From the NCBI GenBank assembly GCA_027309085.1, contig DAIDDL010000007.1:1-64000 (forward strand): a stretch of DNA of 64,000 nt, written 5' to 3'. Position 1 is the stretch's first letter; the number at the start of each line of letters is the position of its first letter. Below, one piece after another: positions 2,586 through 10,083 of the stretch. The notes under the pieces were generated by a model, which saw only the letters and a program-made list of their open reading frames with translations, was not told the DNA's origin and did no database searches. A program made the translations under genes and the position numbers. The DNA comes from Sulfobacillus sp. Its GTDB lineage: Bacteria > Bacillota > Sulfobacillia > Sulfobacillales > Sulfobacillaceae.

Positions 2586-3305
2586 TCAGATGAGGTGCCT
2601 GTTCTGCAGCTCCGCGGCGATAAAGTTGCCGAATGCGCGATATCCCCAAGGCGTTGGGTGGACGCCGTCAGGACCTAGAAAGTCGTTGAGGGAAGTGGTC
2701 TCTGCGACCCATGCCCGCACGTCAATCCACGTGACATGAAGGCTGCCAGTGAGGCCCTCGAGGGCATGATTGTACTGATCCTGCCACCAGGTAATGCCTC
2801 CGCAGCGCGCAATCCAGTGCGAGATGCTTGACGAGTAGCGCTGGGACAAAAAGCTGTAATACCGCGCCGGATCAAGGGGGAAGAGGCTAAGCACAGCCAC
2901 CGAGACGCCGTCATTCCTCAGGTGGGTGACTAGAGTGGCCATATTCTCGATAAACTGCTCTAGCGGCACGCGGGCCTGGTGCGGGGAGTCGGGAGCATTG
3001 GCAACGTCTTCCCACAACATGTCAGAATCATTCGCCCCGGCTTCCAGCAGCACCAGATTAGGCATGATGTCGTCCACATCCCGCTGCACCCGCCTTAAGA
3101 GATCCTGTGAGGTGGCGTTGAAGTGACCTTTATTAAACACTTGATAGGCGCCGCGAACCTTCAGGCGGGAAGCCAACTCGGCGGGGTAGGTTGGTGAAAT
3201 TAGGCGCAGACGTTCCTGGACAAACGAAATTCCGCGGGTAATGCTGTCGCCGAAACATACAATGCGTTGGGTGGGGTTGCCGCCACCAAAGTTTTCTTTA
3301 TTCAT
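2586..3305 (-). CDS. SGNH/GDSL-family hydrolase
   Basis: A 239-residue protein with the SGNH blocks in order: block I CFGDSITRG near residue 15, the block II Gly in the NKGHFNA region, block III LLEAGANDSDM near residue 85, and block V DGVHPTPWGY near residue 215. The catalytic Ser is in block I and the Asp-His pair in block V. Such enzymes are esterases or lipases acting on acyl or acetyl groups; the substrate cannot be told. No signal peptide is visible. ATG 3305 is the natural start, but it has no Shine-Dalgarno: the right end of an IscB element lies directly against it, and the frame stays open back into that element to 3527. Confidence 0.75.
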   Translation of the reverse strand: MNKENFGGGNPTQRIVCFGDSITRGISFVQERLRLISPTYPAELASRLKVRGAYQVFNKGHFNATSQDLLRRVQRDVDDIMPNLVLLEAGANDSDMLWEDVANAPDSPHQARVPLEQFIENMATLVTHLRNDGVSVAVLSLFPLDPARYYSFLSQRYSSSISHWIARCGGITWWQDQYNHALEGLTGSLHVTWIDVRAWVAETTSLNDFLGPDGVHPTPWGYRAFGNFIAAELQNRHLI

Positions 3306-3399
3306 CCATTTGCGCGGGAAACCCCGGTATTCATGCCGGGGAGGGATAGCGCGGCAGGCAAAGCCTGCCCCATTCCCGCTGCTCCTTTCGTTTGCAGAA

Positions 3400-4221
3400 C
3401 TATTTTGGACCACGAATACCCATGGCCATCGGCCGTTGAACGAGGGCACAGAAGCGATGGGAGATCCCTTGAATGAGTCCTGAGGTCGTTTTGATGTTGA
3501 AGCTGCCGCTGGCCCGTATCGCGACACGGCCCCGGTAACTCCCGACGTTCTTGCCCGTAGTGACGATGGCTTTCACCAGGTCCCCGGTCTGAAATCCGAA
3601 TGCACTTTTGCTCCGGGCCAGATATCCCCGCGGAAAGCCATGCTTCGTTAGGCGGGTGCGTGGATAACCGCCCCGTCCCGTCGCGTTGATGCTGAGCACG
3701 GGCTGGTGCCAGTTTTCAATGGCATCAACATGTCCCACGCAGGCGGCATCCAGACAGTGGGCTTTCGGCACTTGTGGCTGGTGACGATTCCACTTCGTTC
3801 GGCCGCCGCTGCCGACTTCCACGTCTAGACCCGTGTCTTTCAGGCCCCGGAACAAGGCCCAGCGGGTACTGTTCACCGCCGCCGCATCTCCCAAAGGGGC
3901 TGTGGCGTGTGCCCGTATTGTCCGGACCCGTTCTGGGCGTTTTGCCAAAAACTGCTCTACGGGAATATTGCTTTTGCTCTGGTTGCAATCGTGGCAGGCG
4001 ATGGTGAGATTGCTCACGCGTTCGCTACCCCCTTTGGACCGGGGATGGATATGATCCACTGGTTGCCATGCCGAATCTTCTACCCGGCGATCTTTTAGGC
4101 GAATCGTGAAAGGCATCATGTGGTGAACGACCGCTCGCCCTCTCTCTAACAGTAACCGTGCCCGTTTCTCCGAACACGGCATCAACGGCTTCTGATGTTT
4201 GTCGAGAACCCATATGGCCAT
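3400..4221 (-). CDS. iscB: Truncated IscB: PLMP + half HNH + RuvC-III/C-terminal domain
   Basis: IscB is the RNA-guided nuclease ancestral to Cas9. This 273-residue version keeps the N-terminal PLMP domain (1-53; [15 protein letters not shown] and PFTIRLKDR), the second half of HNH ([11 protein letters not shown]71, CHDCN at 76-80), the linker, RuvC-III (HCLDAA, H155/D158) and the C-terminal domain ([21 protein letters not shown]). At residues 53-55 the PLMP end (AWQP) joins directly to VDHIHP. RuvC-I, the bridge helix, RuvC-II and the first CxxC of HNH are all missing, yet the frame is intact. Full-length IscB is about 400-500 residues. RuvC cannot be active, and HNH lacks half its fold. The ATG at 4221 follows GGAGAAGGAGAG. 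It could be a dying remnant or a nuclease-dead RNA-binding derivative. Confidence 0.85.
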
Positions 4222-4495
4222 GGTACTCTCCTTCTCCCTTACGGGTCTGGTAACGGGGGCCTTCCGGCCCCATCTCCCCTCGGGAAAGTCTGCAACCGGC
4301 TCTCCCCTTGCAGGGACGGCGGGAACCTTCGGCGCTTTCCCGTTCGCCAGCATAATTCCCGCCTTGCAGAGCGGCGGACTGAGGAAGCATTCGCCGGTGC
4401 GTCTGACCGACCTGTTGCAAACGTAGCGGGTTGGTTACCGCTGTCCCTGGTCAACCCAGCCTGTGTTCACAAGCTCCGGCCCTCAGGCCGGGGTA
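4222..4495 (-). ncRNA. Putative IscB-associated omega-RNA region
   Basis: The approximately 270 nt between the element's left end and the iscB start (minus strand) have the layout of an omega-RNA. A GC hairpin at the 5' side (4471-4493) is followed by conserved-looking segments such as GAACACAGGCTGGGTTGACC, then a chain of pairable GC segments leading to the iscB ribosome site. In IscB systems the guide is the roughly 16 nt immediately 5' of this scaffold, which here would be the flanking DNA just beyond 4500. No disruption is obvious by eye. Boundaries are approximate and folding was not computed. Confidence 0.6.
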
Positions 4496-4505
4496 GTTGA
4501 CATGT

Positions 4506-5179
4506 TGAGTCTCCCTCAATCTCATCTATGGCTCCCAGCGGCTAGTGTACCAAGAACGGCTGAATACGTAAAATCTGCCTTATGATGCCGTCTGGTGTCT
4601 GAGGGAAGCGAGAGGGCTGGATGCACGCTGGCAGTGGCCAGATTTCATATACGTGCCGCCATAGCAGAGAGGGCAATAGGAAGGCGTGAGGCCGGGAAAA
4701 CGGCGTTGCAGTGAAATTGTTAGTGGCACCGGGAAGTCATTGGCGGCAGGGACCATTCCCGCTGTCTTCTGGCCACTGGTTTTGGGCAATGCTGGTGTCG
4801 CCCCTATGTTTCTGTGAACACTACGGGTATAGCGTGTCACTCACGGTATTTTGTGCGGTTGCAGAAGGCTTGTTGGCGAGGCCAGTCAAATACTTCCGAC
4901 ATCTGCGAAAATGACTTTCCCAAATCCCGTCGTGCTCTGGAGGAACCTCGGAATTTATGCCCCCCTGAGACGGTCTGGTGTGCCTGACACTTCAGCCGTG
5001 CGCGAAAACCGCTGTGAGATTGTTAGCAACGCGCCACAACGTGCTATCATTGGAACTACTGGAGGATTTCTGCCGTCGAGCGCTGAACGCCACTCGGAAT
5101 CGACAACAGGAAACATTTTCATTCGAATCCAGACCACTGACATGATACACTAACAAAAAACCTCTCAAGGAGTCCACTC
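4506..5179. other. Intergenic region, about 670 bp, no recognised gene
   Basis: Several short overlapping open frames exist on both strands, but none has a recognisable product or good ribosome site. The right part should hold the parB promoter: TGATACACT at 5143-5151 resembles an extended -10, but no clear -35 is seen. The left border is the target side of the IscB element and would supply its guide. Confidence 0.5.
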
Positions 5180-6238
5180 ATGGCTAAGACACGACATTCC
5201 CAAGATTCCTCACTGAACAAAGGGCCGAGCCCCGAGGACATTGCTCGCGGCATCCGTTCGGCGGCTCGGGGAGGGGAGAGTCCCGTAATTAATGGGACGC
5301 CCGTCACCGACGAGCCCGAGCTGCGCACGACGGTCTCGCAAGATATTCTGCTGAAAGATATTGATCCTCGCGGCACCAATGTCAGAAGCCGCATGGACAC
5401 GGGTGAACTGAATAATCTGGTGGAGAGCATCCGCCAACATGGCCTGCTGGAACCGGTGATCGTGCAGGTGCTGCCGAAAACCCGTGGTTACCGCTACCGG
5501 CTCATTGCGGGTTTCCGTAGAGTGGCAGCGTGCCGGTTGGTGCCCCTGACTATACTGCCCGCCCGTGTCATCGAGGGTGCGCTAGGGGAGACTGAAGTGC
5601 AACAGCTGCAGTTGACCGAAAACCTGCAGCGGGAAGAGATGAGCATTCACGACATCGTGGCCAGCATCGAGGCCCTGAGAGCGGCAGGCCTGACGCAGCA
5701 GCAAGTTGCGGACCGCTTAAACTTTAGTCTGGCGAAGGTCCGGGTATACCTGCAATTGGGAGCCGGCATGCGGCAGAATAAGAAACTGGCGTTATATGTC
5801 GATCAAGGGCTGCTGGGTATCACCCACTTTCAGGCCGCCGTCGAGCTTATCACGAAGACCCGCCGCAAACTGGGCACGTTTTCCGATAATCCCGAGCTGC
5901 AAGATGAGATTATGAATCAAACTGAAGTGCTCTTTACGGCAATGCTTGACCGGTTGCTTGAAGAAAAGCGCCTGACGGTTAAGAGCATTACCCAAGAAGT
6001 CTCCCATTTGCTAGCACTGGCCGGTATGGCGGATCCCGAAGAACCTGCTGCCAAGGGCGCCACACCTGAGGAGGAGCGGACCGTGCCCGTGCGTGCGGTG
6101 TTGTCGAATTTTCAACGGATCAATGTGGCCCAGCTCAGCGCACCTGAACTGAACGACTTAGTCAAAGTGGGCCAGGCCCAGATTCGGCTCGCGAAGGCGC
6201 GCCTCAAGGAATTGGGAGCCCAAGACACGGCGCAATAA
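5180..6238 (+). CDS. ParB/Spo0J-family partition-like protein (orphan)
   Basis: A 352-residue protein. The ParB N-terminal (CTPase) domain spans about 53-152, with the C-motifs GFRRVAACRL (111-120; usual form GERR) and ENLQREE (147-153). A helix-turn-helix follows (LTQQQVADRLNFSLAKVRVYL cut around 171-191), then a less conserved C-terminal part. ParB proteins load onto parS DNA as CTP-gated clamps; related proteins act as nucleoid or plasmid regulators. No ParA gene and no parS site are nearby, and the basic, Ser-rich first 50 residues are not typical of chromosomal Spo0J. ATG 5180 follows AAGGAG at 5167-5172. Position next to a mobile element suggests plasmid or integrative origin, which is an inference. 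Confidence 0.8.
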   Translation: MAKTRHSQDSSLNKGPSPEDIARGIRSAARGGESPVINGTPVTDEPELRTTVSQDILLKDIDPRGTNVRSRMDTGELNNLVESIRQHGLLEPVIVQVLPKTRGYRYRLIAGFRRVAACRLVPLTILPARVIEGALGETEVQQLQLTENLQREEMSIHDIVASIEALRAAGLTQQQVADRLNFSLAKVRVYLQLGAGMRQNKKLALYVDQGLLGITHFQAAVELITKTRRKLGTFSDNPELQDEIMNQTEVLFTAMLDRLLEEKRLTVKSITQEVSHLLALAGMADPEEPAAKGATPEEERTVPVRAVLSNFQRINVAQLSAPELNDLVKVGQAQIRLAKARLKELGAQDTAQ

Positions 6239-8718: not shown

Positions 8719-8835
8719 CCTCTTATCGAGAGTGGCGGAGGGACTGGCCCGATGAAGCCCGGCAACCCCCAGAAAGCATATTCTGGCGGGTGCTAATTCC
8801 TGAAAGACGCAGGTCTTTCGAGATGAGAGGGAACG
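8719..8835 (+). ncRNA. SAM-I (S-box) riboswitch
   Basis: The leader carries the S-box core: TCTTATCGAGAG at 8721-8732, GGCGGAGGGACTGGCCCGAT around 8734-8753, GAAGCCCGGCAACC around 8754-8767, then the variable P3/P4 hairpins and the closing GAGATGAGAGGG. SAM binding stabilises the aptamer and lets the terminator just downstream form, switching off the following trans-sulfuration gene when SAM is plentiful. This is established behaviour for S-box leaders. Confidence 0.93.
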
Positions 8836-8895: not shown

Positions 8896-10083
8896 ATGGC
8901 GGCTGGGTGGCGGCGCAACACTTTGATGGTACATGCAGGAGATGGAATGTTTGGGGATCTGGAACCGACGGCACTGCCTATCTACCCCGCGACGAGTTTT
9001 CGGTCGCGCTCAGCGGAATCACTGGACCAATTGATGGCAGGCCAAAGGCAGGGGTTCTCGTATGCGCGCCATGGCAATCCCAATGTTGATGCCTTGGTGG
9101 AGGCCATGATGCGGCTGGAGGGGACCGAAACTGGCATTGCGACGGGGTCGGGAATGGCGGCCATAGATGCGGCGCTGTACGCTTCCGGACTGGCTGTAGG
9201 TGACCGGGTGCTGGTGTCTCAGGATGTCTACGGGGCGTCTCTCAGCTTGCTGTCCACGATTTGGCGCGAGGCTGGTGTCGAAGTGATCGTCGCGGACTTG
9301 ACGGAGGCGGGGTTCTTCGCATCACAGCTGGAGCAGTCGCAGCCTAAGGCCGTTCTGGTGGAGACCATTTCCAATCCGCTGCTTAAAGTCCTCGACATTC
9401 CCGCCATGAGTCGGCTGGCTCATGACGCAGGTGCACAGATGATTGTGGACAACACATTTGCGACTCCAGTCATGTGTCGCCCTGCCGAGTGGGGAGCTGA
9501 CTTGGTCGTGCACAGTGCGACCAAGTATCTGGGAGGACACGGTGATGCCATGGGCGGGGTTGTTCTCGGACGCCATGAGCATCAAGACCGGCTGCACCAG
9601 TACCTCAAGCTTAGGGGAGCGGTTCTTGGGCCCTTTGAGGCATGGCTGATTCACCGGGGGCTTCGGACGTTGGGGGTCCGCTTTGAGCGTCAGAGCGCCA
9701 ATGCCAAGCGCGTGGCCAAGATGCTGTATGACTCGGGGCTCTTTGCCCATGTGTATTATCCTTTGCTGGAAGACCACCCGACGTACACCACGGCGCGGAA
9801 GGTGCTGGGGGATATCTTGGGGGGAGCTGTGGTTACACTGGACCTCAAGGGAGGGAAAAACGAGGTTTTCCGCTTTATCGACCATTTGGAATTGGTCGCC
9901 TCGGCCACCACAGTGGGCGATATCTATTCGCTGTGCTTATATCCGCTCATTGCCTCCCACCGCAATCAAACTCGGGAAGAAAGGGCCAAGATGGGCATTT
10001 CAGATGCCACAGTCCGAATATCTGTGGGTCTGGAAGATCCGGAAGACATCGCATTGGATATTATCAAGGCCGCGACGGTTTAG
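8896..10083 (+). CDS. PLP-dependent trans-sulfuration enzyme (cystathionine gamma-synthase/lyase family)
   Basis: A 395-residue Cys/Met-metabolism PLP enzyme. It shows YARHGNPN (56-63; PLP phosphate and Tyr contacts), GSGMAAIDAAL, VDNTFATP (185-191) and the PLP lysine K210 in SATKYLGGHGD. The C-terminal substrate-carboxylate region includes SHRNQTREER and RISVGLEDPEDI. The family includes cystathionine gamma-synthase, cystathionine beta- and gamma-lyase, O-acetylhomoserine sulfhydrylase and methionine gamma-lyase; sequence alone does not separate them reliably. The S-box upstream favours a methionine biosynthetic role (gamma-synthase). ATG 8896 follows AAGGAGG. Confidence 0.88.
   Translation: MAAGWRRNTLMVHAGDGMFGDLEPTALPIYPATSFRSRSAESLDQLMAGQRQGFSYARHGNPNVDALVEAMMRLEGTETGIATGSGMAAIDAALYASGLAVGDRVLVSQDVYGASLSLLSTIWREAGVEVIVADLTEAGFFASQLEQSQPKAVLVETISNPLLKVLDIPAMSRLAHDAGAQMIVDNTFATPVMCRPAEWGADLVVHSATKYLGGHGDAMGGVVLGRHEHQDRLHQYLKLRGAVLGPFEAWLIHRGLRTLGVRFERQSANAKRVAKMLYDSGLFAHVYYPLLEDHPTYTTARKVLGDILGGAVVTLDLKGGKNEVFRFIDHLELVASATTVGDIYSLCLYPLIASHRNQTREERAKMGISDATVRISVGLEDPEDIALDIIKAATV

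What the first reader, a model, noticed from the sequence alone, without database searches (positions are those of the whole stretch)
4222..4517. Preserved omega-RNA region and guide position beside the catalytically broken IscB
Seen: about 270 nt upstream of the broken nuclease keeps the left-end hairpin and scaffold-like segments with no obvious damage, although the protein has lost its RuvC catalytic core. Known: in IscB systems the guide is the flanking DNA just 5' of the scaffold, here about 4501-4517 read on the minus strand. Inferred: if the RNA is conserved while the nuclease is dead, RNA-guided binding without cutting, or use in trans by another IscB, becomes plausible.
Basis: partly seen in the sequence, partly recalled or inferred. 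Interest (0 to 1): 0.6.

Follow-up and report, generated by a model that had tools for sequence, protein, structure and literature searches.

The report
Guide-RNA remnant beside broken IscB
A small bacterial transposon has recently lost a third of its RNA-guided DNA-cutting protein but still carries that protein's guide-RNA gene, and the intact RNA is best explained by how recent and how common such damage is, not by a new function of the broken protein.

Summary
The minus strand at 4268-4501 is a full-length Rfam HEARO/omega-RNA (104 bits, E 2e-20). The guide is 4502-4517 and the whole IscB element is 3306-4501. The protein lost more than the RuvC core: a single in-frame deletion of about 167 codons removes RuvC-I, the bridge helix, the REC linker, RuvC-II and half of HNH.

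RNA-guided binding by this protein is therefore implausible, because the parts that hold the seed and the heteroduplex are gone. The RNA is no better preserved than the remaining coding sequence, and the deletion is private to this genome. Broken IscB beside an intact omega-RNA is common: 18 of 46 assessable loci in this bacterial family. The guide has no second match at 2 mismatches or fewer in its own genome.

Best reading: a recently deleted, non-autonomous IscB insertion sequence. Use of its RNA in trans by two intact IscBs of the same omega-RNA type (C84, C87) is possible but untested.

By-product, more interesting than the finding: a monophyletic Acidithiobacillus clade of full-length IscBs under purifying selection has lost RuvC-II Glu, and mostly also RuvC-I Asp, while keeping HNH and omega-RNA. 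Independent RuvC-I Asp-to-His elements have moved between sites.

The parts
3306..4501 (-). whole IscB/HEARO insertion element (1196 bp; intact relatives C84 and C87 about 1700 bp)
   Evidence: left end GTCAAC and right end ..TTTCCCGCGCAAATGG in register with other copies in the same genome
4268..4501 (-). omega-RNA scaffold (HEARO RNA, RF02033), 5' end at the left end of the element
   Evidence: cmscan 104.3 bits, model 1-211, E 2.1e-20
4476..4491 (-). left-end hairpin CCGGCC-TGAG-GGCCGG
   Evidence: sequence; consensus fold of eight copies
4502..4517 (-). predicted 16-nt guide GAGGGAGACTCAACAT (flanking host DNA, Shine-Dalgarno region of the interrupted gene)
   Evidence: variable flank directly 5' of the invariant GTCA left end in all copies
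4228..4233 (-). Shine-Dalgarno AAGGAG of the iscB remnant, at the 3' end of the omega-RNA region
   Evidence: sequence
3400..4221 (-). iscB remnant, 273 aa plus stop: PLMP, half HNH, RuvC-III, WED/TI; RuvC-I, bridge helix, REC linker, RuvC-II and HNH CxxC deleted
   Evidence: Pfam RRXRR 3-55, HNH 55-85 (profile 16-46/47); NCBIfam guided_IscB 185.7 bits; alignment A1
4057..4062 (-). in-frame deletion junction (codons 54/55), about 500 bp lost relative to C84
   Evidence: blastn and protein alignment against C84, C87, C118
3322..3341 (-). right-end hairpin CCCCGGCATGAATACCGGGG
   Evidence: sequence
3302..3305 (-). ATGA directly outside the right end: predicted TAM (fits NNRR) and start codon of the downstream gene
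   Evidence: junction comparison in six copies; NNRR TAM of OgeuIscB from PMC9640706
2586..3305 (-). host gene displaced from its ribosome-binding site: SGNH/GDSL hydrolase, 239 aa
   Evidence: Pfam Lipase_GDSL_2 E 7e-21

Best explanation
The locus is a recently decayed, non-autonomous copy of an IS200/IS605-type IscB (HEARO) insertion sequence. It sits exactly between the Shine-Dalgarno region and the ATGA start codon of an SGNH hydrolase gene. One illegitimate, in-frame deletion of about 167 codons destroyed the nuclease. The omega-RNA lies in the part of the element that the deletion missed and has had little time to decay. Its guide spells the occupied insertion site, so in this cell it has no target. 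Shown: the omega-RNA, the guide position, the deletion and its extent, the privacy of the deletion, equal divergence of RNA and residual CDS, and the absence of a second target. Inferred: that the protein does not fold or bind RNA productively, and that no selection keeps the RNA.
For: Full-length HEARO at intact-copy score. The deletion removes RuvC-I Asp60, bridge helix, REC linker, RuvC-II Glu168 and the HNH CxxC (C84 numbering); BH, REC linker and RuvC hold the seed and heteroduplex in OgeuIscB (PMC9640706). The full-length 1-273 match exists only in this genome among 41 searched. Private substitutions: 8/172 omega-RNA vs 18/397 C-terminal CDS; private coding changes 2 synonymous, 4 non-synonymous, few and near neutral. 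Decay is common: among 46 omega-RNA loci over the Rfam cut-off and not at contig ends, 18 have broken or absent IscB, five of them in this genome. If four deletions of the sizes seen in this genome (C150, C139b, C96, C109) fell at random, all would spare the omega-RNA with probability 0.40. Guide: itself only at 2 mismatches or fewer; 16 vs 14 control at 3; none in IMG/VR with RTGA; best other hits in the family have 3 mismatches, near control.
Against: The remnant stays one open frame with its ribosome-binding site (a one-in-three chance for a deletion). The four private substitutions in the C150 omega-RNA all keep the consensus structure (2 unpaired, 2 pairs kept), whereas two of three in the C139b copy break pairs. 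This is weak, undated evidence for constraint.
Confidence: 0.72

Rival explanations
1. Trans-served omega-RNA. The deleted element is a non-autonomous derivative whose omega-RNA is transcribed from the upstream host promoter and loaded by an intact IscB (C84 or C87). If the element is excised, that RNP cuts the healed SGNH site and restores the element by recombination.
For: C84 and C87 encode IscBs with open frames and intact catalytic residues. Their omega-RNAs are 87% and 80% identical to that of C150. Both element ends are kept. Five Y1 transposase genes exist in the genome. Private RNA changes keep the structure. A joint of guide and ATGA would be a proper target with an NNRR-type TAM, while the element's own left end reads GTCA and is not.
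Against: No second copy of this deletion derivative exists, so no sign of movement after the deletion. RNA divergence equals that of useless residual coding sequence. No expression data.
Confidence: 0.22
2. RNA-guided binding without cutting. The 273-aa protein binds its omega-RNA and acts as a repressor, like the TnpB-derived TldR proteins.
For: Open reading frame, own ribosome-binding site, PLMP and C-terminal TAM-interacting parts kept. TldR is the precedent (PMC13418256).
Against: TldRs lost only nuclease activity without apparent loss of guide-RNA and DNA binding; here bridge helix, REC linker and most of RuvC are gone. No target in the genome. Allele private. A shallow AlphaFold model of the remnant has no residue above pLDDT 70, against 77 in an intact relative with an equally shallow alignment (both models poor).
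Confidence: 0.03
3. The RNA-like signal is chance or a generic hairpin region.
For: Single-sequence folding is no better than shuffles (z -0.88).
Against: E 2.1e-20 to a curated covariance model over its whole length, at the right place 5' of an iscB remnant, in register with eleven further copies in the genome.
Confidence: 0.01

Closest known systems
IscB / HEARO insertion sequences (OMEGA; Rfam RF02033, NCBIfam NF040563)
   Same: omega-RNA at the left end with guide in the flank, iscB directly downstream, PLMP, HNH half, RuvC-III and C-terminal domain, RTGA outside the right end
   Different: about 167 codons deleted: no RuvC-I, bridge helix, REC linker, RuvC-II or HNH CxxC
IshB (HNH-only IscB relative, from my own knowledge; named in PMC12477157)
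   Same: PLMP plus HNH without a working RuvC
   Different: here HNH itself is cut in half and the RuvC-III/TI part is kept; a single private deletion, not a family
TldR (TnpB-like nuclease-dead repressors)
   Same: nuclease inactive, guide RNA kept
   Different: TldR keep RNA and DNA binding, recur across genomes and have conserved targets; none of these holds here
Non-autonomous IS200/IS605 derivatives (internally deleted or omega-RNA-only copies)
   Same: both ends and omega-RNA kept, ORF deleted; several in the same genome (C139b, C96, C126)
   Different: nothing essential; this is one more such copy

Membership tests
HEARO / omega-RNA (RF02033) | covariance-model score over gathering threshold | tested here: met
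   104.3 vs 83 bits, full length
HEARO / omega-RNA (RF02033) | 5' end at transposon left end, variable flank as guide, iscB ORF just downstream | tested here: met
   invariant GTCA left end in the other copies of the genome, variable flank, ATG at 4221
HEARO / omega-RNA (RF02033) | transcribed and bound by IscB | not testable with these tools
   no expression data
functional IscB | RuvC catalytic Asp (I), Glu (II), His/Asp (III) | tested here: not met
   Asp60 and Glu168 (C84 numbering) deleted; RuvC-III HxxD kept
functional IscB | Arg-rich bridge helix | tested here: not met
   deleted
functional IscB | complete HNH | tested here: not met
   profile positions 16-46 of 47 only, CxxC half missing
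functional IscB | PLMP (RRXRR) domain | tested here: met
   RRXRR positions 1-52/174, E 1.2e-14
TldR-like RNA-guided repressor | nuclease-dead but RNA/DNA-binding parts kept and conserved across genomes | tested here: not met
   bridge helix, REC linker and RuvC deleted; allele in one genome of 41
TldR-like RNA-guided repressor | guide matches a second genomic (promoter) site | tested here: not met
   no site with 2 mismatches or fewer besides itself
IshB | complete HNH with PLMP, no RuvC | tested here: not met
   HNH incomplete, RuvC-III part present

The most novel reading that the evidence does not exclude
Internally deleted HEARO elements such as this one are omega-RNA-only mobile parasites: their guide RNAs are loaded in trans by intact IscB proteins of sister copies, which keeps the proteinless element at its site.
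Probability: 0.2. Interest if true: 0.5.

Novelty: new member of a known kind. Interest (0 to 1): 0.3.

Why it matters
As it stands it is an ordinary decayed transposon copy, useful mainly as a warning that an intact omega-RNA next to a dead IscB is no evidence of a repurposed function: in this bacterial family about four in ten assessable omega-RNA loci look like that. The contrast case found on the way does carry the signature expected of a selected change: a clade of full-length IscBs with open frames, strong purifying selection, bridge helix and HNH kept, and the RuvC active site lost stepwise. If those are HNH-only nickases that still serve transposition, they are the mirror image of IsrB (a RuvC-only nickase) and would show whether a nick suffices for guide-RNA-driven transposon retention.

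Tried and rejected
Empty site in relatives: the SGNH hydrolase has no relative at E 1e-20 in 40 kin genomes and none was found in genome contigs, so the empty site is inferred from the junctions. Promoter scan found none on the minus strand at 9 of 12 matches; by eye TTTACG-17-TACACT lies about 50 nt upstream of the element, too weak to claim. AlphaFold of the remnant (mean pLDDT 35.8) and of an intact relative with an equally shallow alignment (49.9; a first attempt failed): both poor, used only as weak support. RNA minimum free energy: uninformative. TldR-like repression by this protein: rejected for missing domains, private allele and no target.

Full report
WHAT IS THERE. The minus strand at 4268-4501 is a full-length match to Rfam RF02033 (HEARO, the IscB omega-RNA): 104.3 bits, gathering score 83, E 2.1e-20. 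The whole genome holds 12 HEARO copies. Aligned in register, they all begin with GTCA(A/T).. and a C-rich hairpin, and the sequence 5' of that point differs in every copy. In the six copies with a recognisable right end (..TTTCCCGCGCAAnTGG; C139b ..AACTAG, C126 ..TTTCCCGCAAATGG) the element is followed at once by ATGA. The element here is therefore 3306-4501, 1196 bp, the guide is 4502-4517 (GAGGGAGACTCAACAT), and ATGA at 3302-3305 is both the expected TAM (NNRR in OgeuIscB, PMC9640706) and the start codon of an SGNH hydrolase.

THE PROTEIN. The 273-aa remnant carries RRXRR/PLMP (1-55), then jumps into the middle of HNH (55-85), then RuvC-III and the C-terminal domain. Against the intact paralogue C84 the missing stretch is residues about 56-220. 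This stretch contains RuvC-I Asp60, the bridge helix, the REC linker, RuvC-II Glu168 and the HNH CxxC. In the OgeuIscB complex the guide seed is anchored by bridge-helix arginines, and the heteroduplex lies in a channel of BH, REC linker and RuvC/WED. It follows, as inference, that the remnant cannot hold an R-loop, with or without cutting.

IS THE RNA PRESERVED BY SELECTION? Its score equals that of intact copies (C84 105.3, C87 106.6), and its four private substitutions keep the consensus structure. But the rate of private change is the same in RNA (8/172) and in the residual C-terminal coding sequence (18/397). Private coding changes are few and show no constraint (2 synonymous, 4 non-synonymous). 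The same deletion occurs in no other genome searched. Under random placement, four deletions of the sizes seen in this genome (C150, C139b, C96, C109) spare the omega-RNA with probability 0.40. In the bacterial family, of 46 omega-RNA loci over the cut-off and not at contig ends, 28 have a complete IscB frame and 18 do not (classification by similarity to four reference IscBs, so approximate). Recency and chance suffice.

TARGETS. The guide occurs once in the genome at 2 mismatches or fewer (itself). Including itself there are 16 hits at 3 mismatches or fewer, against 14 for the reversed control, and the contexts that were read show no shared feature. With RTGA appended there is no hit in IMG/VR, and in 34 family genomes only three 3-mismatch hits besides the locus itself, where the guide is exact and the element's own left end GTCA replaces the RTGA, against one for the control. 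The guide spells the Shine-Dalgarno region of the gene the element sits in, so the natural target is the empty site, absent from this genome.

MECHANISM MOST LIKELY. An IS200/IS605-type IscB element inserted between Shine-Dalgarno and start codon of the SGNH gene (junctions shown; transposition route inferred from family knowledge; five Y1 transposase genes exist). A later deletion removed the core of iscB. The omega-RNA remains and may be transcribed from the host promoter upstream (not shown). Two intact IscBs with omega-RNAs of the same type (C84, 87% identical; C87, 80%) could load it; this trans reading is the main rival (0.22).

BY-PRODUCT. Searching for relatives revealed what a selected RuvC-dead IscB looks like. 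In Acidithiobacillus and a related MAG, five full-length loci (L082, L084, L087, L088, L089) have RuvC-I LKLDPGSK changed to VAAAPGSK, LSITPGSK or LKVAPGSK and RuvC-II SQELVRFD changed to STMLHRFD or STLLHRFD, with HNH and RuvC-III kept. They form one clade (support 100/98) with dN/dS 0.12-0.19, like intact ones. All but L084 have an omega-RNA over the cut-off. Two more loci with the same RuvC-II change still have RuvC-I Asp (L238, L239), so Glu was probably lost first. Separately, Asp-to-His at RuvC-I occurs in L240, L244 and L242 and, in the window's own family, in L064. L240 and L244 are 1,699-bp elements identical over that length, with different flanks and guides, so an element with this change has moved. 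I found no description of this in the held papers, but the founding OMEGA papers are not held.

LIMITS. No expression data. The assembly was not checked against reads. The empty site was not found.

Noticed in passing
L082:3341-4711, L084:3282-4691, L087:3341-4708, L089:3341-4753 (all +), L088 (ORF near 3341-4576), with L238 and L239: Monophyletic clade of full-length Acidithiobacillus-type IscBs that lost RuvC-II Glu (SQELVRFD to ST[ML]LHRFD) and mostly also RuvC-I Asp (to A or T), with HNH, bridge helix and omega-RNA kept and dN/dS 0.12-0.19: predicted natural HNH-only nickases.
   Followed up: partly
L240 and L244 (G070:C1 about 1.866 and 1.879 Mb), L242, L064: RuvC-I Asp-to-His IscBs with omega-RNA (RF02033 over cut-off in L240, L242). 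L240 and L244 are identical 1,699-bp elements at two sites with different guides, so the mutant element has moved.
   Followed up: partly
right ends of elements C84, C87, C96, C139b, C150, C126 in the window's genome: In six of six copies with a recognisable right end the element abuts ATGA, which in five is the start of an open frame of 150 aa or more (301, 150, 165, 239, 255 aa) and in the sixth lies 4 nt before one. The guide is therefore the Shine-Dalgarno region of that gene. About 16% of RTGA sites in the window open a frame that long.
   Followed up: partly
window 4498-4501 versus 3302-3305: The left end beside the guide reads GTCA, whereas the right flank reads ATGA. The third base (C versus G) breaks the NNRR rule, which would spare the element's own guide DNA from cleavage.
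   Followed up: no
L010/L044 (C139b), G046:C61:36202-36496: Omega-RNA followed directly by the C-terminal end of iscB: proteinless derivatives whose guides look like ribosome-binding sites. The C139b RNA already has two broken pairs.
   Followed up: partly
G005:C133:8205-8414 and G044:C140:9518-9728: Two genomes of different genera share the same broken IscB with an identical guide flank, which suggests transfer or contamination.
   Followed up: no
window 8720-8829 (+): SAM riboswitch (84 bits) upstream of a PLP-dependent Cys/Met-metabolism type enzyme ORF at 8896-10083 (the enzyme name is my reading).
   Followed up: no
window 5180-6238 (+): ParB_N-domain protein beside the element.
   Followed up: no
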